Shown here: positions 7,801-60,088 of the stretch, piece after piece
How positions within the stretch are numbered: the first letter of the stretch is position 1
Layout: each line of letters starts with the position of its first letter
NCBI GenBank assembly: GCA_902774185.1
Contig: CACYHE010000003.1
Location: 75,997-139,996 of the forward strand
Direction of reading: 5' to 3'
From: an uncultured Bacteroidales bacterium
GTDB lineage: Bacteria; Bacteroidota; Bacteroidia; Bacteroidales; Paludibacteraceae
DNA: 64,000 nt
Notes under the pieces: generated by a model
Database searches by the model: none
What the model was told of the DNA's origin: nothing
Seen by the model: only the letters and a program-made list of their open reading frames with translations
Made by a program: the position numbers and the translations under genes

Positions 7801-10142
7801 CGTTCTTCGTACGCCACAACCAAACACCGGTTCTGCGTATCCAACAGGCATCGGTAGATGGTTCGGGTAATATCACTTGGAATGAGTATCCTACTTCAGG
7901 AACACCGACTAACCAGATAACGGGTGCTATTGCTTCTGCAATCACCAAAGATACGGTTTATAACTTCAACTTATCAATGAACGGTAGCGGTGCGTTGTCT
8001 GTGGCAGGTGTAGAATATTACTCCGGTAATTACTATATCCGTACCGATGCAGCGAACAGCAAATGGGATAACTATCGCACCGATCCGGATCACTTGATGA
8101 CCTATTCGGAATACCTCAAGTCCGATGTCGGTTACACCCACTATTATACGCACTGGGTAAATAAAGACGATGTTGGACGCAAGAATGTGAAGTTTGTTAT
8201 CGCCAATGACTATAGTCCGTGTATATCGGATACATTAGCACGTGAAACCGCTTCCGGTACGTGGGCAAATATCGCTACATTTATGGAAGAAGGTGGTGAT
8301 TTGAAACGTAGTGCGAATGTCCGCTTCATGTGGGATATCAAGACGAACAACATCGCTCGCGCATATATTGATGGTGCACAAGAGGATGGTAGTGAGTTCT
8401 TGTTGCTACTCAGCAGTGATAGTAAGATAAAACAAGGAGAGACGACAAAGACGCAAGTTACTTTCTCCGATAATGGTAACTGGATTTATGAGGCCAATAT
8501 CAAAGCACAGCCGAATGCCCAAATTAAGTTGAAGTCTACTTGGGGTACGGGCGGTACAGCTATTGAGCAGTACTTTAAAGGCGCTTCTGATGACACAGAG
8601 ACTCTCGTAGGAGGTAGCGGAGATACCTGGTATGATTTCCGTCTGATATATGACTTTAAGACGAACCGCCTCATGGCATCCTATGTACCTGCTACAGGAA
8701 CCATCAGTACGGACATTCCTATCAATGCTGATGTGATGTTTATCCGTGAACACCAAGGAGATATTGCTCAGTTGACGTTTGTCGACGAAGGTGCTATCTC
8801 GGCGATCAAGACGGCTTACGGCGTAATGCGGTTCAACAAGTGGACGATTAATAACAAAGACAAGAGCACGCATGATCCGTTAGATCCGGACCTCTCTCGC
8901 TATGAGCGTGACTTGTTCTACATCTCGTTCCCGTTCCGTGTGAGCCTTGAGGAGGTATTTGGATTTGGTACGTATGGTACGCATTGGATCATTGAAGAGT
9001 ACGATGGCGCAGGACGTGCCGAGAAGGGCTTCTGGGCAGATAGTCCAACATTCTGGAAATTCATTACGAATCGTAAGGGTAAGTTCTTGGAGCCGAACAC
9101 GGGTTATCTCTTGGCTCTTGACTTAGATGTATTAGGTGAGGCTTCCGATGTATGGGCACATACTGACCAAGTAGAGTTATACTTCCCGTCCTATGGTAAT
9201 TTGGGGAATATTACTTCGTCGAGTGTAACTTACGAAGTTCCGGCACATACTTGTAACATTGGTCCGCGCTTCGAAGGAGGAGATGATCGTCGCATAAAGG
9301 ATAGTCACTGGAATGTAATGTCCGTTCCGACCTATATCAACACCACTAACGTAACGTTTGCTAATACAACGTGGATAACAGAAGGTGATGGACGATTAGG
9401 ACCCAACTTCCTCTACGAATGGAACTCGGCTTCTAATACATTAACAGCACGTTCAGGCGTGGGTTACACGTACCACGCTATGCACGCTTATATGGTACAG
9501 TACTGCGGTAATGTGACATGGTCGACTAGCGTAACACCGGCTGCAGCTCCGAATCGTAATCCTGACGCTCCGCAAGATGCGGAATATCGTCTGGAGTTGC
9601 GTCAGAATGATGTGGCTGTGGATCAGGCATTCGTTCGTCTGAGCGACGATGAGCATGTAACGACCGGCTTTGACTTCAACTACGATCTGTCGAAAGAGTT
9701 CAATAAGAACAAAGCGAATATCTACACGATGGTTACTACGCAGATGGAGGATGGTCCGTCGATCACCGAGACAGCAGGTAACTGTCTGCCGATGAGTGAA
9801 CAGACGACGGTAGTACCGGTAGGTGTTATCGCGAAGACGACGGGCGACTATACATTCGCTATTCCGGAAGGAACGAATGGAGTTGGTGTTACGCTGATCG
9901 ATAATGAGACGGGTATCCGCACCAGTCTGAGCGCATTGGATTACACGATTAACCTCCCGGCAGGTACGTACAATGAGCGCTTCGTTCTGGAGATCTCGCC
10001 GATACGTCCGATCAGTACTGATCTGGAGAATACAGAATACAGAATACAGAATACAGACGTACGCAAGGTGCTCATCGATAACATCCTGTATATCGTGAAG
10101 GATGGCGTGATGTATGATGCCCAAGGAAAGCGTTTACAATGA
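1830..10142 (+). CDS. Giant secreted multidomain surface protein (2,770 aa) with InlB-type repeats
   Basis: An N-terminal extension is followed by a hydrophobic signal core (about residues 27-44, ending QMWA). Recognisable modules: a BIG2-like Ig domain near 375-455, bacterial repeat modules ending in 'KNW' or 'ITANFA' near 545-635, an InlB B-repeat at about 638-714 (YNFVEWYTDA...LYAKW), two starch-binding-like beta modules near 808-1030, a further repeat near 1032-1113 (KFVGWYREA), another InlB repeat at about 1326-1402 (YTFAGWATS...LWAVW), and a long C-terminal region with FYISFPF and LDLDVLG motifs common in Bacteroidales surface giants. The end carries the short tail shared by other secreted proteins here (ILYIVKDGVMYDAQGK). 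An adhesive or glycan-binding role is likely but unproven. A 7-bp tandem repeat at 10027-10054 encodes the linker just before the tail. No clear promoter was found upstream. Confidence 0.8.
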   Translation: MKKINLIKGLWNDSHEKQTPQTFGRYAVMLLMLLTLGVGQMWADAWVCRKTDGGEIATKTVGDKLNGGSEWLYKFETNGGWGSASDVQVLVGTSNSQYTTVNADWEYDSGDNKGVKGDIGSVTFDRSGKWYAVGKYYDCYTQGKDVWCRNTTLSMTGNTPPYWTVNPPAVSSFSVARSGYLAGSGTSEDPYLVASGSTLTLTGSGSQAISDANSSVNYKFGSDAYSTTATKNITVTSSGSIAVKARCKNTSASLDGAETETITIYYAPVSVKDITVYIYVGGHTEGDINSVEMNGCTPYVGTKALTAVKINNRAAGDPKFTLSGNWLYYTFTNVTKVSNITCARSGGNIFTGEITDNVYYTYEGASLPGQCIARTTPTWNVAPANGAAGGSMTATINNVPDGATVTWSSSATSYATVDDGLISYVAAGSATISARIQKAADGDYCALDETISQAITVTSGATVSATRACPEYVSTNSGQVKLDISSTGASTGWYYRVCNSTKTAYYAPDEQSAASNTLSWTMNGSLPTGSNTLVVELYNSARQLVCTSSSVTVNVEIAESVTISAGANGSVSPSGTVYANNNHVHPTITAIPDEHYHFKNWTSSNAAASVADANNATTTVTATASGCTITANFAGDQYTITYKDQGDVAYSGSNEGSLPATHTYGTATALVNGTKNGYNFVEWYTDASCTISAGSSIGATAKTSNFTLYAKWTENMSALSTSCSYNAGTPGYAAPTVSNSATNVGYVTTRTITATAAGTGYTFAGWTLTNCTRTDGGGATANPITVRSNGDGAAVTVVANYNEVLTTNWYISGDGNGTGTDLTPGSPFSGWGTSGTRMQKKSGYSTVEKYYCTFNVTTLATTDDHFPFQVYDGTNHRGYNGYWITKENNSTTVYTGNPTNMKFRPYIAGTYEFEVDNTGANPVLTVHWPVINQLRISSASPADATNVNNFDLADKGSNNWSVKRTLNANTTYTFKMVYDGAWYGDGHAFTRASNTTTGLEDGDNMTLKTDVAGEYTFTFNSSSKNLEITYPAAYTVTYGVGTSYTSMGSASTSPSVTSGNYVLAGTEVAFTATPNLGYKFVGWYREAACTNLVSASNPYEQTINANTTLYAKFEYRVLYIHADWLSWGTAQMTQSTVDRAIYTYEIDPLAVKSGTPSTAEGGHHFHFVNTADNPNDHKAYDYYGVHTPTGSGYLVDGDIHLTDPGNATIQFDLTRKSKITITLTLQTIDDATKPTLNIDADPYYTVNTAKGGSGTAGTSVSPASVEARSGANSAEITASINPGYSLVNWTASSANITINSPNSTTTTVRASADGTITANARAHTYTIHFNGHGNTGGGTADQAAVVYDVSTALTANGFTKTGYTFAGWATSEDGEKVYDDEDSVLGLTTTDNGTVNLWAVWTPNPYTVVLDKQTSAEGYGGNAGTVTNQTVTFDATPAAVSGTMPSAANGYAFMGFYSATGGNGRRFIDPSGNWVTSAGDTISGGNWVHDGDVTLYAYYKKAEITNLALDAATVEPEATVGVTPTISPTPAGTTIICWEVQYAATGNPLSPQPGMTWSAGKLTFDAPAASGLYKIVATLKTGDDCDGGTTLSSSFVNFQVAGSHTVTVAYKYSGTDIAASTSVTGRPLDWSDPITAPDIFGYTFDHWTAGDGITLSEDGESDFGEDESSSATIYIKAIYDGTLTANYTPKSLIYFKNTLGWSSVYVNFYGEDGYWDDKGSGNKSVTNRNKAMSRIGETDVWYYDYGAASITPTKWVAFTQDSQNGDGSGAQNFWASGTGEPVSYPARRADDLADKAGETGFYAATPMFVPLAGQTPITKNESGGGKALYYNSGYWTKYLPGTGYTLEIYNAAGNSKLKEMDFSSADELMPMKAVADLEANTTYKFQIKRHGDVYLGNSGTMTYTNHGQSTPWEMTNSGFSMCGITTTAAGDYTFNFSYSANASNQYRLRISVDYPVADGDYRLVYTDGTRSGRLKPSAIVQKENDGSAIVSFFVRHNQTPVLRIQQASVDGSGNITWNEYPTSGTPTNQITGAIASAITKDTVYNFNLSMNGSGALSVAGVEYYSGNYYIRTDAANSKWDNYRTDPDHLMTYSEYLKSDVGYTHYYTHWVNKDDVGRKNVKFVIANDYSPCISDTLARETASGTWANIATFMEEGGDLKRSANVRFMWDIKTNNIARAYIDGAQEDGSEFLLLLSSDSKIKQGETTKTQVTFSDNGNWIYEANIKAQPNAQIKLKSTWGTGGTAIEQYFKGASDDTETLVGGSGDTWYDFRLIYDFKTNRLMASYVPATGTISTDIPINADVMFIREHQGDIAQLTFVDEGAISAIKTAYGVMRFNKWTINNKDKSTHDPLDPDLSRYERDLFYISFPFRVSLEEVFGFGTYGTHWIIEEYDGAGRAEKGFWADSPTFWKFITNRKGKFLEPNTGYLLALDLDVLGEASDVWAHTDQVELYFPSYGNLGNITSSSVTYEVPAHTCNIGPRFEGGDDRRIKDSHWNVMSVPTYINTTNVTFANTTWITEGDGRLGPNFLYEWNSASNTLTARSGVGYTYHAMHAYMVQYCGNVTWSTSVTPAAAPNRNPDAPQDAEYRLELRQNDVAVDQAFVRLSDDEHVTTGFDFNYDLSKEFNKNKANIYTMVTTQMEDGPSITETAGNCLPMSEQTTVVPVGVIAKTTGDYTFAIPEGTNGVGVTLIDNETGIRTSLSALDYTINLPAGTYNERFVLEISPIRPISTDLENTEYRIQNTDVRKVLIDNILYIVKDGVMYDAQGKRLQ

Positions 10143-10185
10143 TGCGAATGGTGCAAATGGTGAAATGGTGAAAATTATGATAGAT

Positions 10186-10536
10186 ATGAAAAAGTTTATG
10201 ATGATAATCATGGCGGTGGCGCTGATGGCGCTGCCGACCATGGCGCAACAGCCGGATTGGAAATCCACATCGACTATGCAAGGAACGGGAAGCGCTTATG
10301 CACCGCAGGTAATGGAGGTTGGCGCAACGACCGTACCGACGATCGCTACGACGACGGAGAGTTATTCGCCAGCAAAAGCACCCAGTGGTCCGCGTAGAGG
10401 TTTTGACCATGGTGCAGAAACCGGGCAATCTACTGAATTTCCTATCGGCGATGCGGTATTGCCTTTGATGCTGATGGCAATGCTTTTTGCGGGAGTGGTG
10501 TACACTCGCCGCAAGAAGCAGGCAGCTAAGAGCTAA
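10186..10536 (+). CDS. Small secreted protein with C-terminal membrane anchor
   Basis: 116 residues from ATG 10186 (MKKFMMIIMAVALMALPTMAQQ, a signal peptide). The in-frame ATG at 10114 would give an unlikely N-terminus inside the giant gene; ATG 10177 is a second possibility. After the signal peptide comes a Thr/Ser/Pro-rich stretch, then a hydrophobic segment (AVLPLMLMAMLFAGVVY) and a basic end (TRRKKQAAKS), like a single-pass membrane anchor with a positive stop-transfer tail. It follows the giant gene by 43 bases and probably shares its transcript, so it may help anchor or process the giant protein. Its stop codon lies inside a 7-bp tandem repeat. Function unknown. Confidence 0.65.
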   Translation: MKKFMMIIMAVALMALPTMAQQPDWKSTSTMQGTGSAYAPQVMEVGATTVPTIATTTESYSPAKAPSGPRRGFDHGAETGQSTEFPIGDAVLPLMLMAMLFAGVVYTRRKKQAAKS

Positions 10537-10551
10537 GAGTTAAGAGGTAAG
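10524..10551 (+). repeat. Heptad tandem repeat AGNTAAG x4 across a stop codon
   Basis: Four 7-base units at 10524-10530, 10531-10537, 10538-10544 and 10545-10551 (AGCTAAG, AGCTAAG, AGTTAAG, AGGTAAG). The stop codon of the small membrane protein (10534-10536) is in unit two. Confidence 0.9.
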
Positions 10552-10605
10552 AGTTTACCAAACCCTCCGAAAGGAGAGGTATTTTTCATAATATTTTTAT
10601 ATTCG

Positions 10606-10722: not shown

Positions 10723-10797
<75 letters not shown>

Positions 10798-14179: not shown

Positions 14180-14201
14180 TATGTCTTTAAATAGTTCCAA
14201 A

Positions 14202-14229
14202 ATTTCAAATTTCAAATTTCAAATTTCAA
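14202..14229. repeat. Heptad tandem repeat ATTTCAA x4 between genes
   Basis: Four exact 7-base units (14202-14229), followed by a partial unit, fill the gap between the UbiA start and the GH13 stop. Confidence 0.92.
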
Positions 14230-14240
14230 ATTGCTCAAAA

Positions 14241-15909: not shown

Positions 15910-15940
15910 CTAGGAACCTAGGATCCTAGGACCCTAGGAT
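15910..15940. repeat. Octad tandem repeat CCTAGGA(N) between ackA and GH13 gene
   Basis: Units CTAGGAA, CCTAGGAT, CCTAGGAC, CCTAGGAT follow one another. Each unit contains the palindrome CCTAGG. Confidence 0.88.
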
Positions 15941-17137: not shown

Positions 17138-17168
17138 ATTTGTGATTTGTGATTTTAGATTTGTGATT
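17138..17168. repeat. Heptad tandem repeat ATTTGTG in the pta-ackA gap
   Basis: Units at 17138, 17145, 17152 and 17159 (ATTTGTG, ATTTGTG, ATTTTAG, ATTTGTG) fill the whole spacer from the ackA start codon to the pta stop codon. Confidence 0.92.
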
Positions 17169-18166
17169 TATTTAATCGCCTGGTTGGCAGTGATTACTAC
17201 CATTTGTACGATGTCTTGCACTTTGCAGCCACGGCTGAGGTCATTGACCGGCGCTGCGATACCTTGGAGAATCGGTCCTACAGCATCGGCTCCGCTGAAA
17301 CGCTCAACGAGTTTGTAACCGATGTTACCTGCCTGTAAATCAGGGAAGACGAGTACGTTCGCTTTGCCGGCTACCGGGCTACCCGGTGCTTTGGTTTTGG
17401 CTACGGATTCAACGAGCGCGGCGTCTGCCTGGAGTTCACCGTCCAGTTGCAGCTCCGGTGCCATCTCTTTGGCGAGACGGGTAGCTTCGGAAACCTTATC
17501 GACCAGTTCATGCTTGGCACTGCCTTTCGTGGAGAAAGACAACATCGCTACGCGTGGTTCGATACCTGCGATAGCGCGTGCTGTTTCTGCCGTGGAGACA
17601 GCTATTTCTGCCAGTTGTTTTGCATCCGGATTCGGGTTGACAGCGCAGTCCGCGAAAAGCAGGAATCCGTTCTCTCCCAGCTGTTTAGCCGGTGTGAACA
17701 TGAGGAATGCACCGCTGACGATGGAGCAACCGGGTTTGGTCTTGAGGATCTGGAAAGCGGGACGAATGGTGTCGGCTGTGGTGCCACGTGCACCGGCTAA
17801 CTCGCCGTCCGCATCACCGGCTTTGATCATCAAGCAACCTAAGTACAAAGGATCCTGTGCTTTCTTGGCCGCTTCCTCCTCGGTCATACCTTTGCTCTTG
17901 CGGAGTTCGAAAAGCAGGTTGGCATACTGAGGCATCTTCGGATCATGGATCGGATCTACGATCTTCGCCTCCGAGATATATTGGTATCCCTTCTCGGAAG
18001 CCATGCTTTTGATCGTCTGAGGGTCACCAATCAAAATAAGCTGCGCAATCTTGTCTTTCAACAAAATGTTCGCAGCCTCTAAGGTACGGGGTTCATCACC
18101 CTCCGGCAACACAATGCGCTGTGGATTTGCTTTCGCACGTGCTACCATTTGTTGTAAAATGTCCAT
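17168..18166 (-). CDS. pta: Phosphate acetyltransferase
   Basis: 332 residues, the short single-domain form. Clear family segments: RIVLPEGDEPRTLEAA at 17-32, GSAKHELVDKV, DGELQADAALV and NVLVFPDLQAGNIGYKL. It makes acetyl phosphate from acetyl-CoA and phosphate; together with the downstream ackA it forms the acetate-forming pathway. First gene of the minus-strand operon pta-ackA-GH13-ubiA-like. A -7 promoter box lies about 75 bases upstream. Confidence 0.97.
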   Translation of the reverse strand: MDILQQMVARAKANPQRIVLPEGDEPRTLEAANILLKDKIAQLILIGDPQTIKSMASEKGYQYISEAKIVDPIHDPKMPQYANLLFELRKSKGMTEEEAAKKAQDPLYLGCLMIKAGDADGELAGARGTTADTIRPAFQILKTKPGCSIVSGAFLMFTPAKQLGENGFLLFADCAVNPNPDAKQLAEIAVSTAETARAIAGIEPRVAMLSFSTKGSAKHELVDKVSEATRLAKEMAPELQLDGELQADAALVESVAKTKAPGSPVAGKANVLVFPDLQAGNIGYKLVERFSGADAVGPILQGIAAPVNDLSRGCKVQDIVQMVVITANQAIK

Positions 18167-20248: not shown

Positions 20249-20250
20249 CG

Positions 20251-20305: not shown

Positions 20306-22264
20306 ATGAAACATCAAATCATCACTTTTTGTGTCGCCGTTGTCCTGTTGGGCGCGTGTGCGCGTACGAATAAGCAGACCATGGATACTTCTTCTCAACC
20401 GCTTGGCGTGGCGCAGGCGCGTGCGTTGTGGACACCGGAAGATGGTTCACAAGCGGAGTTTGACCAATTGGTTAACGACTATCTGTGTACGACCGACAGT
20501 GAGCGCGTGGCGCTCTTTGAGTCCTTGAGCAGGATCTTCGAGAACTGCTACCAATCCGCAGACATGCTGACGGTAGAGTTGTTACGTCCGACGCAGTTGA
20601 CGAATGCAGCGGAACCGCAAGTGCCGGATTGGATCATGTCCGGTTATAGTCCTTTAGCGCATTTCTCCGATGACATGTTCGCCAATAAGTTGGCGTTCAT
20701 CACTATTATGAACTTCCCTCATTACAGTCTGGAAGAGAAGAATACGTTAGGTGCGCACTGGACGCGACAGGAGTGGGCGTTCGCACGCATGGGTGATATA
20801 TTTACGGAACGCGTGCCTGCGCGTGCGACTGCGCACGTGGCTCAAGCGTTTGCCGATGCAGAGAACTACATCGCCGATTATAATATCTATATGGGTAATC
20901 TGCGGACGGAAGACGGTAGGCAACTGTGGCCCGAAGACAAAGTGCTGCTTAGTCACTGGAACCTGCGGGATGAGTTGAAAGCTTTGTATGGGGCGCCGGA
21001 CGGGCAGGAGAAACAGGAGATGATTTATCAGGTGATGCAACGTATCGTGGAGCAGTCGATACCTGCGCAAGCGATCAATAACCCCGATTATATATGGCAA
21101 CCGTATGCGGTTACCTTCGACGAGTCAGAACCGTACACGCGATATGAGCGCATATTGGGTAACGCGCATGCGATGTTTGAGCAAGATCCCTATTGTCCTT
21201 CTGCGCCTACGGCTATTCAGCGAAATTTCGAATCCGGTATGGAGATCCCTGCGGCAGAGTTGGACAGTCTCTTCCGGGCTTTGGTAGGTTCGGAACAAGT
21301 GCAGCAGGTAGCATCTGTCATTCGGGAACGCTTGGGTAGGGATCTTCGTCCGTACGACATCTGGTATGACGGTTTCAAGGCGCGTGCCTCGATGGATGAG
21401 GATCAGTTGTCGGTTACGACAAGGGCGTTGTATCCCGATGCCAATGCGTTTGCTGCGGATATGCCGCGTCTGCTGACGAAGATGGGTTTCTACAGCGAAG
21501 ATGCACGGGAGATTGCACGACATATTGTGGTGGAACCGGCACGCGGTTCGGGTCACGCTTGGCCTTGCTTGGGTCGCAAAGAAGATGCTCGTCTGCGTAC
21601 ACGTATTCCGGATGCGGGTATGGATTATAAGGGGTATAACATCGCCGTTCATGAGTTTGGTCACTGCGTGGAGCAGGTACTGGACATGTATCAAATCGAC
21701 TATTACATGCTCTCCGGTGTACCCAATACGGCTTATACCGAAGCATCTGCTTTCCTTTGGCAACAACGGGATTTGCGATTGTTACCTAATAACGGTGAAC
21801 GGTTAGCGGTTAGCGGTGAACGGGACGAAGTCTATGACCAATTCTGGTCCATGTATGAGATCATGGGTGTGAGTCTGGTGGACATGCAGATGTGGCAGTG
21901 GATCTATGCGCACCCGAAGGCGACGCCGAAACAGTTGTGCGAAGCGACGATGCAGATCGCCAAGGAAGTATGGAATCAGTATTACGAACCTGTCTTGGGT
22001 GAACATGACTGTATCTTGCTGGCGGTGTATAGCCATATGGTGAACGCTCCGATGTATCTGCCCAATTATCCCTTGGGACATATCGTGCAGTATCAGTTGG
22101 AGGAACATCTGGCGCAATACAATAATCCGCAAGATTTTGCACAAGAATACCGGCGTATCTACCGTTTGGGCAGGTTGACTCCTAAACAATGGATGATTCA
22201 GGCCGTTGGAGAGGCGCCTTCTATTGAACCGATTCTGCGTGCTGTGGATGCCTATAAACAATAA
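20306..22264 (+). CDS. Lipoprotein zinc metallopeptidase (HEFGH type)
   Basis: 652 residues with a lipoprotein signal (VVLLGAC, C18), so probably anchored in the outer or inner membrane. The zinc motif H449-E-F-G-H453 (VHEFGHCVEQV) is followed 26 residues later by E479 in TEASAF, a spacing close to that of M3-type thimet peptidases. The rest of the sequence is not clearly M3, so the family is open. It is the first of six plus-strand genes up to 27706 and is separated from the next by six bases. A heptad tandem repeat at 21794-21828 encodes NGERLAVSGER in its C-terminal half. Confidence 0.78.
   Translation: MKHQIITFCVAVVLLGACARTNKQTMDTSSQPLGVAQARALWTPEDGSQAEFDQLVNDYLCTTDSERVALFESLSRIFENCYQSADMLTVELLRPTQLTNAAEPQVPDWIMSGYSPLAHFSDDMFANKLAFITIMNFPHYSLEEKNTLGAHWTRQEWAFARMGDIFTERVPARATAHVAQAFADAENYIADYNIYMGNLRTEDGRQLWPEDKVLLSHWNLRDELKALYGAPDGQEKQEMIYQVMQRIVEQSIPAQAINNPDYIWQPYAVTFDESEPYTRYERILGNAHAMFEQDPYCPSAPTAIQRNFESGMEIPAAELDSLFRALVGSEQVQQVASVIRERLGRDLRPYDIWYDGFKARASMDEDQLSVTTRALYPDANAFAADMPRLLTKMGFYSEDAREIARHIVVEPARGSGHAWPCLGRKEDARLRTRIPDAGMDYKGYNIAVHEFGHCVEQVLDMYQIDYYMLSGVPNTAYTEASAFLWQQRDLRLLPNNGERLAVSGERDEVYDQFWSMYEIMGVSLVDMQMWQWIYAHPKATPKQLCEATMQIAKEVWNQYYEPVLGEHDCILLAVYSHMVNAPMYLPNYPLGHIVQYQLEEHLAQYNNPQDFAQEYRRIYRLGRLTPKQWMIQAVGEAPSIEPILRAVDAYKQ
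21794..21828 (+). repeat. Heptad tandem repeat inside the metallopeptidase gene
   Basis: Five 7-base units GGTGAAC, GGTTAGC, GGTTAGC, GGTGAAC, GGGACGA, read through in frame. Confidence 0.88.
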
Positions 22265-22270: not shown

Positions 22271-23815
22271 ATGATCATGAAACGATGGATGTTATTGATT
22301 GCAGCAGGATGTTTGTTTGCTGCTGTGTATGGAGAATCCGTTACTTATACGGCAGATAACACGACGGTTTTCTCCAATCCTGAGCGAGGGTTCATAACGA
22401 TGTTAGAGGGTCATCTGACCAAAAGCAAACCGTATGCCGTCAAAGGGAAAGAGAGTACGTTAGACAGCTATAAATCCAAGGAGAGTATGTCCATCGTGCT
22501 GGTGCATTACTATCTGGATAATTTTGTTTCGAAGTCCACTCTGCCGGATGCCGTTTTGAACGGTTTTGATGCGGATATGCAGGTGTTGCGCAGCAAAGGG
22601 ATGAAAGCTATCGTCCGTTTTTCGTACACCAATACAACGTACATGAACGGGGATGAGGAGTCCGCAAAGGATGCCACATGGCGGGTAGCCAAGAGTCATA
22701 TCAACCAGTATAAATCGCATTGGCAGGCGAATGCGGATGTCATCTTCTGTTTTCAAGCCGGTATCGTAGGCGCATGGGGAGAGTGGTATTTTTCCGATAA
22801 CTACGGTAACCAATCGGGTCATATCAATGATGCGCGCAGAGAGGTGATCGACTCGTTATTGTCGGCCGTACCGCATGACCGTTGTATCCAATTACGTACG
22901 CCGCTCTTCAAGACCGATTATGTCGGAGATACGGAGCCTTTGACAGCAGAAGAAGCGTATAAGGGTACGCCCAAAGCTCGTCTGGCTCAACATAACGACG
23001 CTTTTTTGTACGACTATGACAACATGGGCACTTACGAGGATACCGCTACGCAGAAGCCGTGGTTAGCGCAAGAGACGCTGTATGTGCCTATTGGCGGAGA
23101 GACCGATATCACAGAAGCGGATAAGGCACAGAAATGGGCTACGTATGAGAAGACGACGGCTGAGATGAGTCGTTTGCATTGGACGTTCATCCAAAGCGGG
23201 TATGCGGAGACGACCACGAACATGTGGCGTAATAACGGTACGTTTGAGGAGTTGAACCGCAAGATGGGTTACCGGTATCAGTTGGTGAGCGGTACGTATA
23301 GCGACCAGGTGGAGGCAGGGCATAAGATGTCGGTTAATATGCAGATCCGTAATGCCGGTTATGCACCGCTGTATAATGAGCGGCCGGTGTATCTGGTGTT
23401 GAAGAGTAATCAGAATTCAGTATTCAGTATTCAGCTCAAAGCCGATCCTCGTCGTTGGTTACCGAACGGTGTGGTATCAACCATTGATGAGCAAGTCACC
23501 GTACCGGTTACGGTACCTGCCGGCACGTATGAGTTATACCTCTATTTACCGGACGCATACCCTTCGATTGCTTCTAATCCTGCCTATGCCATTCGTTTTG
23601 CCAATGAAGGCGTATGGGAGGCCTCTACGGGTATGAATAAACTGAACGCAACGGTGACTGTTACGGAAGGACAAAATCCGCCGGAAGGACTGCAACAACC
23701 GGTAGAAGGGAAGCAAGGACAAGCTTTCGATGTGTTAGGTCGACCGGTGGATGCGGATTCGTATCAAGGTGTTGTCATCCGGAACGGACAGAAGACGATA
23801 CACGTCGGACAATAA
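22271..23815 (+). CDS. DUF4874/DUF4832 secreted protein, paralog 1
   Basis: 514 residues with a signal peptide (MIMKRWMLLIAAGCLFAAVYG). The N-terminal DUF4874-like part has NPERGF near 36-41, a (beta/alpha)-barrel-like pattern with MKAIVRFSYTNT and VGAWGEWYF, and HNDAFL further on; the C-terminal DUF4832-like part ends in a beta-sandwich (NAGYAPLYNERPVYLVLKSN). The tail FDVLGRP...GVVIRNGQK resembles a sorting tail. The Glu in GxWGEWY and the Arg, Lys and Asp motifs are shared by all three paralogs here, which suggests an enzyme, perhaps a glycosidase; no activity is known to me. Seven bases after the peptidase gene and 13 before paralog 2. Confidence 0.82.
   Translation: MIMKRWMLLIAAGCLFAAVYGESVTYTADNTTVFSNPERGFITMLEGHLTKSKPYAVKGKESTLDSYKSKESMSIVLVHYYLDNFVSKSTLPDAVLNGFDADMQVLRSKGMKAIVRFSYTNTTYMNGDEESAKDATWRVAKSHINQYKSHWQANADVIFCFQAGIVGAWGEWYFSDNYGNQSGHINDARREVIDSLLSAVPHDRCIQLRTPLFKTDYVGDTEPLTAEEAYKGTPKARLAQHNDAFLYDYDNMGTYEDTATQKPWLAQETLYVPIGGETDITEADKAQKWATYEKTTAEMSRLHWTFIQSGYAETTTNMWRNNGTFEELNRKMGYRYQLVSGTYSDQVEAGHKMSVNMQIRNAGYAPLYNERPVYLVLKSNQNSVFSIQLKADPRRWLPNGVVSTIDEQVTVPVTVPAGTYELYLYLPDAYPSIASNPAYAIRFANEGVWEASTGMNKLNATVTVTEGQNPPEGLQQPVEGKQGQAFDVLGRPVDADSYQGVVIRNGQKTIHVGQ
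23415..23434 (+). repeat. Heptad repeat ATTCAGT inside DUF4832 paralog 1
   Basis: ATTCAGT, ATTCAGT, ATTCAG, encoding part of NQNSVFSIQ. The same tract occurs at the matching place of paralog 2 (24955-24974). Confidence 0.9.
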
Positions 23816-27115: not shown

Positions 27116-27143
27116 TTTGTCATTTGTAATTGGTGATTTATGA
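27109..27143 (+). repeat. Heptad repeat bridging stop and next start codon
   Basis: Five units TTTGTAA, TTTGTCA, TTTGTAA, TTGGTGA, TTTATGA. The kinase stop TAA (27113-27115) and the next ATG (27140-27142) both lie inside the tract. Confidence 0.92.
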
Positions 27144-31498: not shown

Positions 31499-31509
31499 AA
31501 CCAAAAATA

Positions 31510-41405: not shown

Positions 41406-41439
41406 TTGAGAGTTGAGAGTTGAAAGTTGAGAGTTGAGA
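41405..41439 (+). repeat. Heptad tandem repeat GTTGAGA x5
   Basis: Units at 41405, 41412, 41419, 41426 and 41433 (the third is GTTGAAA). It starts at the last base of the aldolase subunit stop codon. Confidence 0.95.
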
Positions 41440-41460
41440 GAAGTCGTCTAGTAGATAGTT

Positions 41461-42831: not shown

Positions 42832-42860
42832 TGTGTAATGTTTAATGTGTAATGTGTATG
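42829..42860 (+). repeat. Heptad tandem repeat TAATGTG bridging stop and start
   Basis: Units TGATGTG, TAATGTT, TAATGTG, TAATGTG, TATG. The esterase stop TGA (42829-42831) is in the first unit and the kinase ATG (42858) ends the tract. Confidence 0.93.
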
Positions 42861-43805: not shown

Positions 43806-43855
43806 TCATTTACGATTTGGTCATTTATTGTGTCATTTAGGCATTTAGCCATATT
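43803..43855 (+). repeat. Degenerate heptad tract (ATTTACG/CATTTAG) entering the next gene
   Basis: ATTTACG, ATTTGGT, CATTTAT, then CATTTAGG and CATTTAG. It covers the PfkB stop codon and the GTG start of the next gene. Confidence 0.8.
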
Positions 43856-46154: not shown

Positions 46155-47962
46155 AGAAGATTTACGTTTTACTGTTGGCGTGTTGCATGGTGATGAGCCT
46201 ATATGCTACCCCCTTAGAGTTGGATCCGGAAGAGGTGTTGGCAGACACGATGTATGCTCGTGAAGACCACACGATGCCTTCCTACATTGCTTTTTTAGTA
46301 GCGAAACGCGCTGCGGTAGCTGATCCTACGCAAGCTAATCTGCAAGCATTGGTGGATAAAGTAGCCGCATTGCGTCCGAAAGAAGACCCCTATAACATGG
46401 TAGCCACCATCAACGGCGATCCGAAGACGAGAATGGGTTTCTGCTGGTTTACCAATGACGGTGTGTTGGATGGCGAAGTGCAGTTGGTTGCGAAAGAGAA
46501 TGCAGAAGAGTCTGATTTTGAGACCGATGCTATCACTTTTGCTGCCACACCGACTCAAACTAAAAAAATATGCTATACCGGTATCGCTTCCTATATCGTC
46601 ACTGCAACGGGTCTTCCTGTCAAAGAGAAACTTCGTTATATCAGTCATAAAGCATTGGCTGAGGACTTGATGCCGGGTACGGCTTATAGTTGGCGTGTCG
46701 GTTATGAAGGGCACTGGAGTCCGATTGCGCATTTCCGCACGGAAGATGAGCATCAAGGGGAGTTTTCGTTCCTATACATGACGGACAGCCATTTGATGAA
46801 TCCGACCTATATCAATGATGCTCGCCGTTGTGCCATCGCGGCAGTGAACACCGTGCCGGACGCCAAGTTCTGTGTGTTCCCCGGTGATTTTGTGGAGGAT
46901 GGTGCGGCACTGAACAGCGAATGGGAATGGGAGCGTTGGTTTGAGGAATCGCTGGAACCGGTGATCAAGAAGATGCCGATTGTGCCGACGGACGGAAATC
47001 ATGACGACAGTCAGAACCTTAACTATACTTACCACTTCAATACCGATAACACGTTTAAGGAAGTGTATAAGAAACCGCAGTTCGACGGCATCATCTATAG
47101 TTTCGTTTATGGCGATGCGTTGTTCCTAGTGTTCTCGATGCAGGATTATTGGCGTGATAACTATACCATCAACGGCTGGAGTTCCACCTCGACCTATTTG
47201 GACGGTCATCTCGGTCCTTGGTTCCGCTCACAGGTAATCGCTAATCCGGATACGAAGTACCGTATCTCGTTGGCGCACTTTAATCTCTTCTCGGGATCGG
47301 ATCACTCTACCGATGTAGCGCCTCCTATGTTCCGCGCATGTATGTTACCGGTTTTCAAAGACTGTGAGATTGATGTGGCGCTGCAAGGTCACGACCATAC
47401 GTATGAGGTGATCGGTCCGGTAAATCCGGATGACTGTACGCCAATCTTGGATGCTATCAGTGACCGAGAGATTGTAGAAATAGACAATAACAAAAACCGC
47501 ACGGGCTATAAGGGAGGTACATATCGCACGGATGATGGTACGTTCTATTTTATCGGCGCAACCTGTGGTCATAAGCGTTACTATCCGCATAGTCGTGAAC
47601 GCATGGAAAGTGAGTACACGGAGGATCCGAACACTTTAAGAGACGACAAGCATCATAATGTAAAGAATTATTTTGATTTGTTCACCGGTATGTTCGGTCA
47701 GCCGGAAGCACCTTCGTTCACCAAGGTTACCGTGAAGGAGGACTGCTTGGAGTTCAATTCCTACACGGCGCATAGCGACGGAACGGCTACACTCTTCAAT
47801 ACGATGCGTGTTGTTCGTACCAAGGAGCACTCCGTGCCGCAAGGTTTAGAGACGCCGGAAGTGATAGTTAACAGGAATAAGTTCATTGAGAACGGTATGC
47901 TGTTCATTCGCAAAAACGGTCACACTTACAATGCGATGGGACAAGTGGTAAGTGATAGATAA
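46151..47962 (+). CDS. Secreted metallophosphoesterase without beta-helix
   Basis: 603 residues with signal peptide MKKIYVLLLACCMVMSLYA. Compared with its neighbours the beta-helix is missing; it begins directly with the segment YIAFLVAKRAAVADPTQ and the PAP-like domain (YNMVATINGDPKTRMGFCWFTNDG). Phosphoesterase ligands: D212 and H214 (MTDSH), D246 (PGDF), N283, H284 and D285 (GNHDD), H414 and H416 (GHDH). The tail KFIENGMLFIRKNGHTYN is the shared sorting tail. It starts inside the stop of the previous gene (ATGA), so the two are coupled. Likely releases phosphate from an outer-surface substrate. Confidence 0.88.
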   Translation: MKKIYVLLLACCMVMSLYATPLELDPEEVLADTMYAREDHTMPSYIAFLVAKRAAVADPTQANLQALVDKVAALRPKEDPYNMVATINGDPKTRMGFCWFTNDGVLDGEVQLVAKENAEESDFETDAITFAATPTQTKKICYTGIASYIVTATGLPVKEKLRYISHKALAEDLMPGTAYSWRVGYEGHWSPIAHFRTEDEHQGEFSFLYMTDSHLMNPTYINDARRCAIAAVNTVPDAKFCVFPGDFVEDGAALNSEWEWERWFEESLEPVIKKMPIVPTDGNHDDSQNLNYTYHFNTDNTFKEVYKKPQFDGIIYSFVYGDALFLVFSMQDYWRDNYTINGWSSTSTYLDGHLGPWFRSQVIANPDTKYRISLAHFNLFSGSDHSTDVAPPMFRACMLPVFKDCEIDVALQGHDHTYEVIGPVNPDDCTPILDAISDREIVEIDNNKNRTGYKGGTYRTDDGTFYFIGATCGHKRYYPHSRERMESEYTEDPNTLRDDKHHNVKNYFDLFTGMFGQPEAPSFTKVTVKEDCLEFNSYTAHSDGTATLFNTMRVVRTKEHSVPQGLETPEVIVNRNKFIENGMLFIRKNGHTYNAMGQVVSDR

Positions 47963-48007
47963 AAGAGGAAAGACAAAAGACATATGATAATTTTAAATTT
48001 TTAAACC

Positions 48008-53723: not shown

Positions 53724-53759
53724 TATTGACGATTGGACGATTTACGATTGGACGATTCC
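53724..53759. repeat. 7-8 bp tandem repeat ATTGACG / ATTGGACG upstream of deoR
   Basis: Units ATTGACG, ATTGGACG, ATTTACG, ATTGGACG, between the regulator ATG and its promoter. Confidence 0.85.
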
Positions 53760-53981: not shown

Positions 53982-55082
53982 ATGAAAAAGTTTTCTAACA
54001 CACTCATCTTCCTTGCCGCATTGGCATTCGTTGCTTGTTGTAATAAATCTGCTACGGTTGAATCTCCGGCAGATAAGGTGCTGCTGAAGGATTTTAATCC
54101 GGTGGTAGTGAATAATATTCCCGTAACTCAAGTGGAGCGTGCGAAGTTCGACATCATTGATATGCATGCGCATGACTATGCAGAATCAGAGGCGGACATC
54201 GCACAATGGTGCAAGACGATGGATGAGGTCGGTGTGCTGAATACCGCCATTATGCATTGCTCTTGGATCGGTCGTCCGTTTGAGGAATATGTAGCTGCTT
54301 ATGCGCCGTACAAAGATCATTTCCGCTTCTGGTGCTGTTTCGATTATACGGATATTGACAGCGAGGAAGGTATTGCGAAAGCTTGTGAGACCCTTGAGCG
54401 CTATCATAACGAATTAGGCGCTGTGGGAGTAGGTGAGTTAGGCGATAAAGGCGAAGGTGATACTTATGCGCGTCCTACGGACGGAAAGGATATCCATATT
54501 GATGACCCGCGTGTAAAACCGCTTATACAGAAGGCTGCGGAGCTTAAGATGCCGATCAGTATTCATATCGCTGAGCCGTACTGGATGTATCTTCCGATGG
54601 ATGAGACGAACGATGGTCTGGTGAACGCCGTTACTTGGCATGTGGACACTACCAACTGCTACGGATATGACAAGTTGATGGCTACTTTCGAAAATGCCGT
54701 TCGTGAGAACCCGAATGCCATTTTCATCGCTTGCCATTATCTGAATATGAGTCACGATTGGCCGCGTTTGGGTGCATTGCTGGATAAATATCCGAATATG
54801 TATGTAGATATCTCTGCCCGTGTAGCCGAATCTGCGCATACGCCGCGCGCTACGCGTGAGTTCCTTATTAAGTATCAGGACCGTGTGCTGTTTGGTACCG
54901 ACAACGGTATGGATGCGGAGATGTATCGCAATATCTTCCGTGTGCTGGAGACCAATGACGAGCATTTCTATGTTCCCGAGTACGGTTATCATTGGGCATT
55001 GAGCGGATTCAACCTGCCGGATGAGGTACTGAAGAAGCTCTATCATGATAACGCAGAACGAATCTTAACGGAATATCGATAA
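53982..55082 (+). CDS. Lipoprotein amidohydrolase (TIM-barrel metal-dependent hydrolase)
   Basis: 366 residues from ATG 53982 (MKKFSNTLIFLAALAFVACC, lipobox); eleven upstream in-frame codons come from the promoter region. Amidohydrolase-2/COG2159 motifs: IIDMHAHDYA (metal HxH) near 49-54, SIHIAEPYW (metal His), FIACHYLNM (His) and VLFGTDNGMD (catalytic Asp). The substrate is unknown: a deacylation, lactone opening or decarboxylation would all be possible for the family. Membrane-anchored, outside the cytoplasm. First gene of the set that continues with GH36, SusC and SusD. Confidence 0.82.
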   Translation: MKKFSNTLIFLAALAFVACCNKSATVESPADKVLLKDFNPVVVNNIPVTQVERAKFDIIDMHAHDYAESEADIAQWCKTMDEVGVLNTAIMHCSWIGRPFEEYVAAYAPYKDHFRFWCCFDYTDIDSEEGIAKACETLERYHNELGAVGVGELGDKGEGDTYARPTDGKDIHIDDPRVKPLIQKAAELKMPISIHIAEPYWMYLPMDETNDGLVNAVTWHVDTTNCYGYDKLMATFENAVRENPNAIFIACHYLNMSHDWPRLGALLDKYPNMYVDISARVAESAHTPRATREFLIKYQDRVLFGTDNGMDAEMYRNIFRVLETNDEHFYVPEYGYHWALSGFNLPDEVLKKLYHDNAERILTEYR

Positions 55083-55143
55083 TTTACGATTTATTCATTT
55101 ACCATGTACCATTTATTTGGTCATTTAGATATTTAGTCATTTA
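55082..55143 (+). repeat. Degenerate heptad tract between amidohydrolase and GH36 genes
   Basis: ATTTACG, ATTTATT, CATTTAC, CATGTAC, CATTTAT and later ATTTAGA, ATTTAGT, filling the spacer from the stop codon to the next ATG. Confidence 0.8.
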
Positions 55144-57011
55144 TGAAAAAGGCGATATATCTCATAGTAGCGGCGATGATGGTTGCTTGTTGTCCGAAGC
55201 AGGATACGGCTTTAATATGTGCTGAAGCGGATATGCAGGTTTTTCCGTTCAGTGAGAACGGCATGAAGGTGACGAAACACCAGACGGTTAGTCCGGTAGA
55301 AGGTGTTGAGGGACTGGAGATTATTGAGACATACTTTGTGAACGAGGGAAAGCCTGTGACGGTGAAGGCCTATGAGTTATGCCGCACGCAGGTAGAGGCG
55401 AAAGATACGGTGGTATGGTCATTGCAGCCGAGTAGCACCAGTGCCCGTCTGGACTGGGTATTGCCGGTGACGGAAGGTTTTGAGAAGGAGAATTATCTGG
55501 GTATGAATAACTCCGATTACGGAGGCGGTATTCCGATGGTGGACCTTTGGCAGCGTGACGGAGGTATCGCTATCGGTTTGTTCGAACCGGTGCTGCGAAT
55601 GATCTCGATGCCGGTAGAATGGAAGCGCTACGACAATAAAGTGACGATGGCATTGCGGTATAATCTGCCAGAGCCGATCGAATTGGCGAAGGGAGATACC
55701 TTATATTGCTTCAAGGCTTTCCGTTATAACCACAAAGGCGATTATTTCAATGCGCTCCGTACGTTCAGCGACTATATGCAAGCAAACGAGGGTGTGGAGA
55801 TGAGACCGTCTGAACCGGAGGCGTTTGAACCAGTTTGGTGCGCATGGGGCTACGGTCGTCCGTTTAAGATGAACATGGTGTTAGGTACGCTGGACAAGGT
55901 AAAAGAACTCGGTTTCACTTGGGTGGATATCGATGACGGTTATCAGATTGCCGAAGGCGACTGGAATACGAATGAACTTTTCCCCGGAGGCGACAAAGAC
56001 ATGCGCCATATTACGGACGAGGTTCACAAACGTGGTCTGAAAGCCAAATTATGGTGGGCTCCGCTGGCTGCAGATCCCGATACCAAACTTGTCAAAGAGC
56101 ATCCGGAGATGTTGTTGCTTACCGAAGAGTGGGCACGCGAATATATCACATGGTGGGACAGTTGGTATCTGTCGCCGGTAAACCCGGAGGTGGATAAATA
56201 CACCACGGATTTGTTGAAGATGTTTTTGGACAGATGGGGTTTTGACGGATTGAAGATTGACGGTCAACATCTGAATTGCTGTCTGCCGGATTATAACGAG
56301 TTGACGGGTTTGGAGAGTGCATGGGAGGCTCCGGAGCAGATGCCGACCTATTTCCGAAAAGTTTATGAGCAGGCACGTGCTATGAAACCGAATGCCGTTA
56401 TTCAGGTTTGTCCGTGTGGTTGTGCGGTGAACTATTTCTTGGTTCCGGAGATTAACCAAGCGGTAGCTTCCGATCCGATGTCGTCCCGCCAAGTGCGAAT
56501 GAAACGCAAGGCGTATGCAGCGATGGCCCCCGGGTTGGCATATTACGGAGACCACGTGGAGTTGACGGACAACGGCAATGATTTTGCTTCGCAGATAGGT
56601 ACGGGTTCGGTTATTGGAACGAAGTTCACGTGGCCCAAAGATAATCCGGACTGGGCAGAAGGTCCGTTCCTTCTGACGCCGGAGAAAGAAGCATTGGTTC
56701 GCAAATGGATGAAGATTTTCAAGGAGAATAATCTGGCGCGTGGCGAATATCTGAATCTCTATACATGGGGATTTGATTATCCGGAGGCACATGTGATTCG
56801 TCAGAACGATGCCATGTATTATGCGTTCTATATCGATGATGATCCTGCATTTGACGGAACGCTGGAATTGCGCGGGTTGGATGCCAATAAGACCTATACG
56901 GCTATTGAGTACACGGCAGATGAACCGCGTTCATTTGAGGTGAATGGGGCAGATCCGAAGATAGAGGCGAATTTTGAACGGAGTTATCTGATTAAGGTAA
57001 TTGAGAATTGA
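55143..57011 (+). CDS. GH36-type alpha-galactosidase lipoprotein
   Basis: 622 residues with a lipobox (VAAMMVACC). An N-terminal beta-sandwich (about 25-220) is followed by a TIM barrel: WCAWGYGRPF, FTWVDIDDGYQ, WWAPLAADPD, FDGLKIDGQH with nucleophile D373, and ASDPMSSRQVR with acid/base D444 (both numbered from ATG 55143). A small C-terminal domain ends the protein. These are the marks of clan GH-D, family 36-like. It should remove terminal alpha-galactose or related residues (alpha-GalNAc activity also exists in this clan) at the cell surface. Between the amidohydrolase and susC genes in the PUL. Confidence 0.86.
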   Translation: MKKAIYLIVAAMMVACCPKQDTALICAEADMQVFPFSENGMKVTKHQTVSPVEGVEGLEIIETYFVNEGKPVTVKAYELCRTQVEAKDTVVWSLQPSSTSARLDWVLPVTEGFEKENYLGMNNSDYGGGIPMVDLWQRDGGIAIGLFEPVLRMISMPVEWKRYDNKVTMALRYNLPEPIELAKGDTLYCFKAFRYNHKGDYFNALRTFSDYMQANEGVEMRPSEPEAFEPVWCAWGYGRPFKMNMVLGTLDKVKELGFTWVDIDDGYQIAEGDWNTNELFPGGDKDMRHITDEVHKRGLKAKLWWAPLAADPDTKLVKEHPEMLLLTEEWAREYITWWDSWYLSPVNPEVDKYTTDLLKMFLDRWGFDGLKIDGQHLNCCLPDYNELTGLESAWEAPEQMPTYFRKVYEQARAMKPNAVIQVCPCGCAVNYFLVPEINQAVASDPMSSRQVRMKRKAYAAMAPGLAYYGDHVELTDNGNDFASQIGTGSVIGTKFTWPKDNPDWAEGPFLLTPEKEALVRKWMKIFKENNLARGEYLNLYTWGFDYPEAHVIRQNDAMYYAFYIDDDPAFDGTLELRGLDANKTYTAIEYTADEPRSFEVNGADPKIEANFERSYLIKVIEN

Positions 57012-57033
57012 TAATTGACAATTGATAATTTAA
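57006..57033 (+). repeat. Heptad tandem repeat AATTGAT x4
   Basis: Units AATTGAT, AATTGAC, AATTGAT, AATTTAA, beginning inside the last codons of the GH36 gene (stop TGA 57009-57011). Confidence 0.93.
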
Positions 57034-60053: not shown

Positions 60054-60088
60054 TGGATGTGGAATGTTTAATGTGTAATGTTTAAATT
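60054..60088 (+). repeat. Heptad tandem repeat TTAATGT between susC and susD
   Basis: Units TGGATGT, GGAATGT, TTAATGT, GTAATGT, TTAAATT, starting right after the susC stop. Confidence 0.9.

What the first reader, a model, noticed from the sequence alone, without database searches (positions are those of the whole stretch)
10027..60088. Heptad tandem repeats of many different sequences at gene junctions
At least eight gene junctions carry a tandem repeat with a strict 7-bp period but a different unit at each site: 10524 (AGNTAAG), 14202 (ATTTCAA), 17138 (ATTTGTG), 27109 (TTTGTAA), 41405 (GTTGAGA), 42829 (TAATGTG), 57006 (AATTGAT), 60054 (TTAATGT). Looser 7-8 bp tracts occur at 31510, 35109, 43803, 53724 and 55082. 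Most touch or span the stop codon, and some also hold the next start codon (27109, 42829). Because the period is shared but the sequence is not, these did not spread as copies; something makes 7-bp repeats from local sequence. Heptanucleotide STRRs are known in some cyanobacteria; I know of no described equivalent in Bacteroidales.
Basis: partly seen in the sequence, partly recalled or inferred. Interest (0 to 1): 0.85.

Follow-up and report, generated by a model that had tools for sequence, protein, structure and literature searches.

The report
Genome-wide seven-base tandem repeat arrays
This gut bacterium is littered with short arrays repeated every seven bases, at gene ends and inside genes; relatives carry different arrays at the same spots, which suggests that copying of the chromosome keeps writing and rewriting them.

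Summary
In detail: all eight listed junctions carry ~7-bp arrays. In 464 kb of this genome, 76 arrays have period 7, against 0 at 5 or 6, 11 at 8 and 11 at 11; 21 of 76 overlap a stop codon, 1.7 expected.

The reading needs three corrections. (1) Units are not unrelated: 95 arrays use 47 unit types, null ~90, and genomes of one genus favour different units. (2) Arrays are not confined to junctions: 37 of 76 lie inside predicted genes, in forms without in-frame stops. (3) The 'looser' tracts at 31510, 35109, 43803 and 55082 are copies of a ~62-bp dispersed element.

The same junction or loop carries different arrays, or none, in relatives. Junction arrays follow the inferred leading strand (53 of 63) rather than gene sense (29 of 58). 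A held-out test met the strand prediction (12 of 15), but sense was also biased there (9 of 11).

Best account: replication-coupled slippage and template switching, tolerated at junctions and loops. Heptamer arrays are known in Xanthomonas, Nostoc, Beggiatoaceae and some Bacteroidetes; this is a new variant.

The parts
10027..10057 (+). period-7 array, unit AGAATAC, 4.4 perfect copies, inside the 8.3-kb gene 1830-10142
10524..10553 (+). period-7 array AGNTAAG overlapping the stop codon of gene 10114-10536
14200..14232 (+). period-7 array ATTTCAA (sense strand TTGAAAT) between the alpha-amylase-family gene (-) and the UbiA-family gene (-); overlaps the predicted TTG start of the latter
15910..15939 (.). 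period-8 array CTAGGAWC between ackA and the amylase gene
17138..17169 (+). period-7 array ATTTGTG filling the pta-ackA junction: overlaps the pta stop codon, abuts the ackA start
21791..21823 (+). period-7 array AACGGTK inside gene 20306-22264; the orthologue in L019 carries an ACCAATC array at the same place
23405..23434 (+). period-7 array AGTATTC inside a DUF4874/DUF4832 gene
24945..24975 (+). same array in the neighbouring DUF4874/DUF4832 gene
27109..27146 (+). period-7 array ATTTGTN spanning the stop of 26042-27115 and the start of 27140-27706
31509..31549 (+). copy of the ~62-bp dispersed ATTTAC element, at the stop of a gene on the - strand
35110..35153 (+). copy of the ~62-bp dispersed element, at the stop of a gene on the - strand
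41404..41440 (+). period-7 array AGTTGAG at the stop of gene 40176-41405
42827..42858 (+). period-7 array AATGTGT spanning the stop of 41461-42831 and the start of 42852-43805
43793..43852 (+). copy of the ~62-bp dispersed element, spanning the stop of 42852-43805 and the predicted GTG start of 43830-46154
44976..45001 (+). period-7 array AAGGAAC inside the metallophosphatase-family gene 43830-46154
47957..47982 (+). weak period-7 tract AGACAAA at the stop of 46151-47962
53725..53757 (+). period 7+8 tract ATTGACGATTGGACG upstream of a DeoR-family gene (-); resembles the dispersed element but was not an HMM hit
55082..55143 (+). copy of the ~62-bp dispersed element filling the stop-to-start gap
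56998..57030 (+). period-7 array AATTGAN at the stop of 55143-57011 and a predicted TTG start at 57015
60057..60085 (+). period-7/14 array AATGTKT 4 bp after the stop of 57015-60053, holding the start of 60078-61793

Best explanation
The arrays are by-products of chromosome replication that this genus keeps producing and rewriting. During replication the nascent strand slips or switches template in steps of seven bases (less often eight or eleven) and adds heptad copies, either from a local seed or by pairing briefly with another array in the same genome. Where the extra DNA is harmless (right after a stop codon, in the short spacer before a start, in a protein surface loop) it survives; elsewhere it is removed. 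Because arrays can seed one another, each lineage builds up its own favoured units. Because the process differs on the two sides of the replication fork, arrays tend to lie in one orientation relative to replication.

Shown here: the period; the positions; units shared within and differing between genomes; replacement or absence at orthologous sites; presence inside genes; association with the strand inferred to be leading. Inferred: slippage and template switching as the process, array-to-array copying as the source of shared units, that the loops are at the protein surface, and neutrality.
For: Sharp period: and, in a second sample. Over 1.0 Mb around mutS in 59 genomes of the genus, this one included, the periods are 7:83, 11:33, 8:19, 9:4, 12:3, 10:2, 6:1, 5:0.

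Tolerated sites: 21 of 76 at stops against 1.7 expected. Among units within one substitution of a reference, AAAGTTG inside genes is reversed in 8 of 10 and stop-free AAAGTCG is in sense in 7 of 8, while at junctions between same-strand genes AAAGTTG lies in sense in 7 of 8.

Turnover: 11 of 36 relatives have an array in or beside the pta-ackA spacer, with different units (sequences). Two sites of one gene carry different arrays in a few of 52 genomes and none in most, read by eye. A MutS loop carries heptad inserts in G017, G053 and G006 of 57 genomes, but not in G051, whose mutS is 95% identical in DNA to that of G017.

Copying: the two insert sites in the G053 mutS share a 56-base segment with two differences by my reading; the ~62-bp element matches 18 places in ~490 kb.

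Local seeding: the ATTTGAA unit at the UbiA start; an 11-bp array in G051 is the G017 sequence plus exactly 22 bp.

Replication: with strand score |0.1| or more, 53 of 63 junction arrays lie on the inferred leading strand, loci 26:4, p 6e-5, against 29 of 58 in gene sense; without threshold 73 of 107, loci 39:18, p 0.008. With the gene on the leading strand 24:5, on the lagging strand 24:5 (my sums). The same heptamers outside arrays 1863:1621; period-11 arrays 15:14. Held-out stretches 12 of 15, p 0.035, loci 4:1.
Against: The leading strand is inferred from fourfold-site skew in stretches of about 20 kb, not from a mapped origin; skews of + and - genes agree in sign in only 46 of 88 loci. 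The unit families were chosen after seeing the data. Many loci are orthologous (around ackA or mutS), so not fully independent. In this genome gene sense is biased as well: AAAGTTG-like junction arrays 19 sense to 4 antisense, against 22 to 27 in relatives, and 9 of 11 in the held-out set, where only two arrays lay between lagging-strand genes (1:1). So strand and sense are not separated within this genome. Arrays inside genes show no leading-strand bias (18 of 29; 9 of 28 in the held-out set, leaning the other way).

Plain slippage does not predict a step of exactly 7, nor zero at 5 and 6. The G017 mutS insert has no visible seed in G051; it could also be an old insert lost in G051, since G053 has a similar one. 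Unit similarity rises only modestly with proximity (18 near pairs of 74 within 3 kb, 10.2 expected, p 0.009). Within-genome unit sharing is not seen in G017 (5.6%).
Confidence: 0.45

Rival explanations
1. Purely local polymerase slippage with a preferred 7-base step (the contact length of the polymerase), each array growing from its own site, as proposed for heptamer repeats in bacteria.
For: The proposal is cited in PMC4692102 (passage). The units at the amylase-UbiA junction match local sequence around the start codon. The 11-bp array in G051 is an exact local duplication relative to G017.
Against: Units are shared across the genome far beyond chance and differ between genomes of one genus, e.g. 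AAAGTTG 251 against ATTTGTN 3 hits in G050 and 2 against 121 in G005. The mutS insert of G017 has no visible seed in G051. Genomes of the genus range from 0 to 335 hits of one unit family.
Confidence: 0.25
2. The arrays are binding or processing sites in mRNA or DNA, kept by selection at gene ends and starts (translation coupling, mRNA stability, or a buffer of stop codons in all three frames).
For: Strong contact with stops and starts. 28 of 44 junction arrays between same-strand genes in this genome have stops in all three sense frames, against 13 of 44 in antisense; AAAGTTG-like junction arrays of this genome are 19 sense to 4 antisense. Translational roles were proposed for TAACTGA repeats (PMC4679880, abstract and passages).
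Against: About half the arrays lie inside predicted genes; orthologous junctions mostly lack them (11 of 36 have one); over all loci with a clear strand score sense orientation is 29 of 58; nearly complete genomes such as G011, G028 and G038 have almost none of the three unit families counted.
Confidence: 0.12
3. A mobile element or dedicated enzyme (REP-type transposase, reverse transcriptase, or a replication-coupled writer not yet known) inserts ready-made arrays.
For: The ~62-bp dispersed element; the mutS insert in G017 absent from its 95%-identical relative; genome-specific units; orientation following the inferred fork direction.
Against: Y1 transposase (PF01797) and reverse transcriptase (PF00078) models find nothing in the window's genome, which has the highest count of the AAAGTTG family (the genome is 87% complete). 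A Y-family polymerase looked linked at first but G005 and G022 lack a match and are rich in arrays; three-unit total p 0.07. Flanking repeats or target duplications were not tested systematically.
Confidence: 0.15
4. Assembly artefact of metagenome bins.
For: The genus relatives fetched by name are titled as metagenome-assembled or uncultured.
Against: Arrays of ~30 bp are shorter than usual reads (recalled); assemblies of many samples show them; the isolate Bacteroides gallinarum DSM 18171 carries arrays upstream of its ackA (L047).
Confidence: 0.02

Closest known systems
GGGAATC heptamer repeats of Xanthomonas and GGGGA(C/T)T repeats of Nostoc (PMC4692102, abstract start and passages seen)
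   Same: Heptamer tandem arrays, 186 and 183 in two Xanthomonas genomes, close to stop codons, differing in length and sequence between close relatives.
   Different: There one G-rich consensus, 89-93% intergenic in Xanthomonas, no leading/lagging preference. Here many AT-rich units, about half inside predicted genes, a strand preference, and units that differ by genome.
TAACTGA direct repeats of Beggiatoaceae, cyanobacteria and some Bacteroidetes, including Paludibacter (PMC4679880, abstract, passages and section 12 seen)
   Same: Short heptamer arrays touching stops and starts; patchy across relatives; present in Bacteroidetes.
   Different: There one fixed unit, with related heptamers rarely or never repeated in the main genome. 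Here a network of related units with genome-specific preferences.
Heptanucleotide STRRs of cyanobacteria (recalled; a line about Calothrix seen in PMC4692102)
   Same: Heptanucleotide tandem arrays of several units.
   Different: Different phylum; STRR units were not compared here.
REP elements and their Y1 transposases (recalled)
   Same: Dispersed short sequences near gene ends.
   Different: Heptad arrays show no palindromic core by eye, and there is no PF01797 match in this genome.

Membership tests
Xanthomonas-type GGGAATC heptamer repeats | tandem heptamer arrays of at least two units | tested here: met
Xanthomonas-type GGGAATC heptamer repeats | units follow GGGANTN | tested here: not met
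   the commonest units are AAAGTTG, AAAGTCG, AAATTTC, AACTCTC, AAAATTG, AAAGGTG, AACACAG
Xanthomonas-type GGGAATC heptamer repeats | about 90% intergenic | tested here: not met
   39 of 76 outside predicted genes; 43 of 97 in the second sample
Xanthomonas-type GGGAATC heptamer repeats | close to the stop codon of the neighbouring gene | tested here: met
   21 of 76 overlap a stop, 1.7 expected
Xanthomonas-type GGGAATC heptamer repeats | no leading/lagging preference (PMC4692102) | tested here: not met
   53 of 63 junction arrays on the inferred leading strand; 12 of 15 held out; the strand is inferred, not mapped
TAACTGA direct repeats | unit TAACTGA in tandem | tested here: not met
   not among the 47 canonical unit types found in the 464-kb sample
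TAACTGA direct repeats | related heptamers rarely in tandem | tested here: not met
   91 of 95 units connect through single substitutions
Cyanobacterial STRRs | heptanucleotide tandem units in intergenic DNA (recalled) | tested here: inconclusive
   heptads yes, but about half lie in predicted genes; STRR units not compared
REP elements with Y1 transposase | Y1 transposase (PF01797) in the genome (recalled) | tested here: not met
   0 matches in G000, 22 of 61 genomes in the genus have one; the genome is 87% complete
Contingency-locus simple repeats | copy number varies between cells of one strain and switches a gene (recalled) | not testable with these tools
   no population or long-read data at hand

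The most novel reading that the evidence does not exclude
A replication-coupled 'writer' (a polymerase accessory, primase variant or strand-annealing protein) lays down heptads in a fixed step of seven and a fixed orientation to the fork, with unit sequences that it copies from arrays already in the genome. Each lineage would then carry its own evolving heptad vocabulary, written into gene junctions and protein loops alike, and a change of vocabulary would sweep the genome between sister species.
Probability: 0.15. Interest if true: 0.88.

Novelty: new variant of a known kind. Interest (0 to 1): 0.6.

Why it matters
Why bacteria over-represent heptamer repeats has been left at a guess about polymerase contact length (cited in PMC4692102). 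One genus whose genomes range from almost none to hundreds of hits of a single unit family, with units that differ between relatives, the same gene sites hit repeatedly, and a strand bias seen for period 7 and not for 11, makes the question testable by comparison and by mutation accumulation. It also means that short insertions in conserved proteins of these bacteria, MutS among them, can be products of a repeat process rather than adaptations.

Tried and rejected
Loss of mismatch repair: a mutS1 match over the curated cut-off is found in 56 of 61 genomes, among them the richest (G000, G050, G015, G030). Of the other five, G040 and G046 have partial matches, G031 and G059 only a weaker match of the kind most genomes have as a second hit, and G018 (54% complete) none; three of these five (G018, G046, G059) are array-rich. 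Dropped as a general cause.

Y-family polymerase (PF00817): no match in 13 of 61, 12 of them with 14 or fewer AAAGTTG hits, but G022 (95 hits) and G005 (121 ATTTGTN hits) lack it and are rich; total of three unit families p 0.07 without control for descent. Dropped.

Reverse transcriptase (PF00078) and Y1 transposase (PF01797): no match in G000. Dropped as present-day causes.

Shared flanks: one DNA query brought 30 further matches in the genome (40 of 96 candidates scored), 23-50 bp long, on or close to the two arrays in the query; two of them run about 20 bp beyond.

Base composition as the cause of orientation: non-array intergenic DNA has G/(G+C) 0.521 on the inferred leading strand, and single heptamers outside arrays split 53:47; too weak for 84%.

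Direct comparison of G017 and G051: only 25-30 kb of the fetched stretches aligned, one stretch being counted twice; 12.5 kb of that is 97.5% identical and holds no period-7 array, so indel statistics could not be made.

Controls that failed: the 'read backwards' control of the AAAGTTG pattern is the same heptad in another rotation, so it is no control. In one search the backward pattern TGTTTAN turned out to be a real unit in some genomes and was then used as a third unit family.

Rows dropped: one search counts by class exclude units more than one substitution from a reference; searches exclude arrays outside the chosen families (18 of 108) and, where a threshold is given, stretches with weak skew; one search counted 36 of the 37 loci L009-L045 (L045 has no upstream sequence); one search lacks G018 and G031.


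Full report
WHAT WAS CHECKED. The window lies on contig C3 of a 2.19-Mb, 35-contig, 87%-complete genome. The closest acetate kinases found (L009-L027, L042, L045) are 89-94% identical and come from records titled Paludibacteraceae or Bacteroidales, many from rumen or gut. Tandem Repeats Finder reports arrays at all eight listed junctions. A lag scan of the window at score >=13 finds 12 arrays of period 7, one each of periods 8, 11, 21 and 22, four of 14 and three of 15; twenty third-order Markov resamples average 0.05 at period 4 and 0.0 at the others.

GENOME SCALE. In the window plus 20 stretches (464 kb) there are 76 arrays of period 7 at score >=14, 11 of period 8, 11 of period 11, 2 each of 9 and 10, 0 of 5 and 6; 36 at 14 and 8 at 15 are partly the same arrays. 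A second set of 20 stretches (400 kb) has 97 of period 7, 1 of 6, 5 of 8, 8 of 9, 12 of 10, 4 of 11 and 6 of 12. In 1.0 Mb around mutS from 59 genomes of the genus: 83 of 7, 33 of 11, 19 of 8, and 10 of periods 5, 6, 9, 10 and 12 together. The finding therefore extends to the genus, with 11 and 8 as minor periods.

POSITION. My own simple gene finder (305 genes) was used. Of 76 arrays, 21 overlap a stop codon (random 1.7, highest of 200 draws 6), 15 lie within 10 bp of a start (2.6), and 37 lie inside predicted genes (62.8 expected). Of the 39 outside genes, 21 overlap a stop (1.6 expected for random intergenic placement). In the second sample 20 of 97 overlap a stop and 54 of 97 are inside predicted genes. 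Some predicted genes may be wrong or have wrong starts, and a few have low scores (for example L105:10882-11676 with three arrays). Others are secure: the Pfam-supported genes of the window and the 795-residue gene with orthologues, itself included, in 52 genomes.

UNITS. With a threshold of 12, 95 arrays use 47 unit types up to rotation and strand, AAAGTTG ten times; in 30 draws, 95 random intergenic heptamers use 84 or more types, none more than three times. 91 of the 95 are linked by single substitutions (null average 63, highest 79). So the units form a family. Inside genes the family is filtered: of units within one substitution, AAAGTTG, which carries TGA in sense, is reversed in 8 of 10 cases, while stop-free AAAGTCG is in sense in 7 of 8. 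At junctions between same-strand genes AAAGTTG is in sense in 7 of 8; 28 of 44 such arrays have stops in all three sense frames and 13 of 44 in all three antisense frames; 0 of 46 arrays inside genes have them in sense, as they must.

GENOME DIALECTS. Counts of three unit families in 61 genomes of the genus differ strongly: AAAGTTG from 0 (G011, G013, G028, G038) to 335 (this genome) and 251 (G050); ATTTGTN 202 here, 121 in G005, 3 in G050; TGTTTAN 117 in G058, 36 here (hits overlap, so one array gives several). Over all 216 arrays sampled, 13.0% of within-genome pairs from different loci are within one substitution against 6.4% between genomes; this genome 14.2%, G051 9.9%, G017 no excess (5.6%). 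On a mutS tree the preferences follow clades in part, by eye. In 198 genomes of the phylum AATTGAN arrays occur in 60, mostly at low number; this genome has the most hits (91).

TURNOVER AT ORTHOLOGOUS SITES. At the pta-ackA junction 11 of 36 relatives have an array of period 7, 8, 11 or 14, with different units (sequences). In several, the array sits between the stop codon and a conserved ATATCATG leader (my reading). At the amylase-UbiA junction some relatives have arrays whose unit resembles the start region ATTTGGAA while others have the bare junction. Inside genes: window gene 20306-22264 has AACGGTK where L019 has ACCAATC; two sites of the 795-residue gene carry AAATCGA, ATCATCA, TCAGCCR, GCTAACA and other arrays in a few genomes and none in most of 52, read by eye. 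Between G017 and G051 two aligned sites carry arrays of different units. In MutS, one loop carries heptad inserts in G017, G053 and G006 of 57 genomes; G041 and G020 have inserts there that are not heptads. By alignment to solved MutS it falls after residue 140 of the bacterial protein in entry 7ai5, in what I recall as the connector domain. G051, whose mutS is 95% identical to that of G017, lacks 36 bases there and has no obvious seed; loss in G051 cannot be excluded. The two G053 inserts share a 56-base segment with two differences, which points to copying.

DISPERSED ELEMENT. The 'looser' tracts at 31509, 35110, 43793 and 55082 belong to one ~62-bp element; the copy at L105:14598-14659 reads AATTTACGATTTAACGATTTACGATGTACGATTTATTTAATCATTTAGCCATTTAGTCATTT. 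There are 18 matches in ~490 kb of this genome, several of them partial. With a refined model there are 37 matches over the loci searched (19 in this genome), and all nine loci with two or more copies have them in one orientation. Relative to same-strand gene pairs 26 are opposite and 8 in sense.

ORIENTATION. A score for the leading strand was made from fourfold-degenerate sites, corrected for the mean skew in sense. With |score| >=0.1, 53 of 63 junction arrays of the chosen families lie with the chosen form on the inferred leading strand (26 loci against 4), while 29 of 58 lie in gene sense; with no threshold 73 of 107 (39 loci against 18) and 52 of 96. Summing the strong cases by gene strand: 24 to 5 with genes on the leading strand and 24 to 5 with genes on the lagging strand. 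Single heptamers outside arrays are 1863 to 1621; by the G-rich side, period-11 junction arrays are 15 to 14 and period-8 ones 11 to 6. Arrays in genes show no bias (18 of 29). The dispersed element is 22 of 25 at the same threshold (12 loci against 3), some by common descent, and 26 of 37 without threshold. I wrote down a held-out test before fetching new stretches. The strand prediction was met (12 of 15, p 0.035; 28 of 41 without threshold) but the prediction of about 50% gene sense was not (9 of 11), because few of those arrays lay between lagging-strand genes; arrays in genes were 9 of 28. The G050 part of that test could not be fetched. In this genome AAAGTTG-like junction arrays are 19 sense to 4 antisense, in relatives 22 to 27. 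I therefore regard the strand link as likely, not proven; in this genome alone it is not separable from gene sense.

MECHANISM. The bias towards the inferred fork direction, exact local duplications such as the 22-bp difference at the 11-bp array, step size and tolerance-driven placement fit slippage during replication. Unit sharing, genome dialects and seedless inserts need more: copying from other arrays by template switching is the simplest addition. A dedicated writer cannot be excluded. Known candidates tested (mismatch repair loss, Y-family polymerase, reverse transcriptase, Y1 transposase) did not fit.

COMPARISON. Heptamer arrays have been described in Xanthomonas and Nostoc, near stop codons, with no strand preference in Xanthomonas (PMC4692102, passages), and as TAACTGA in Beggiatoaceae, cyanobacteria and Bacteroidetes including Paludibacter, where other heptamer repeats were mentioned in Gramella, 'A. 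sublithincola' and Elizabethkingia (PMC4679880, abstract, passages and section 12). I found no description of genome-specific heptad vocabularies, of arrays inside genes on this scale, or of a strand bias in Bacteroidales in searches (listings seen; PMC4060949 passages also seen) of an open-access library, which lacks most subscription papers.

Noticed in passing
window 823-867; L092:7436-7480, L104:330-374, L105:8561-8605: 11-bp arrays are a second, rarer class; three of them at unrelated places of this genome are nearly identical over ~45 bp (TATTGGGTGATTATAGGG...), so they too recur as copies.
   Followed up: partly
L075:11195-11325, L081:11195-11315, L062:11198-11291 and 12270-12391, L066:12369-12460, L047:9889-9994: In Bacteroidaceae-like relatives heptad arrays come as inverted pairs flanking about 18-66 bp, also between genes of the same direction, so the junction could fold into a long hairpin.
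   Followed up: no
L013, L016, L025 and L027 upstream of ackA; window 25935-25986: Other short repeats with GACCGC...GCG or GCTCGCTTAC cores sit in the same junctions, hinting at a wider set of small dispersed elements.
   Followed up: no
61 genomes of the genus: Y-family polymerase genes are patchy (no match in 13 of 61) and of at least three kinds by score.
   Followed up: partly
dispersed element copies: Letters agree within a copy: copies with ATTTACG tend to have AACG and TACG, copies with ATTTACC tend to have GGTC and TACC, as if units were homogenised within each copy (by eye).
   Followed up: no
window 10723-10797 and 20174-20249: Two tRNA-Met (CAT) genes on the + strand within 10 kb.
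   Followed up: no
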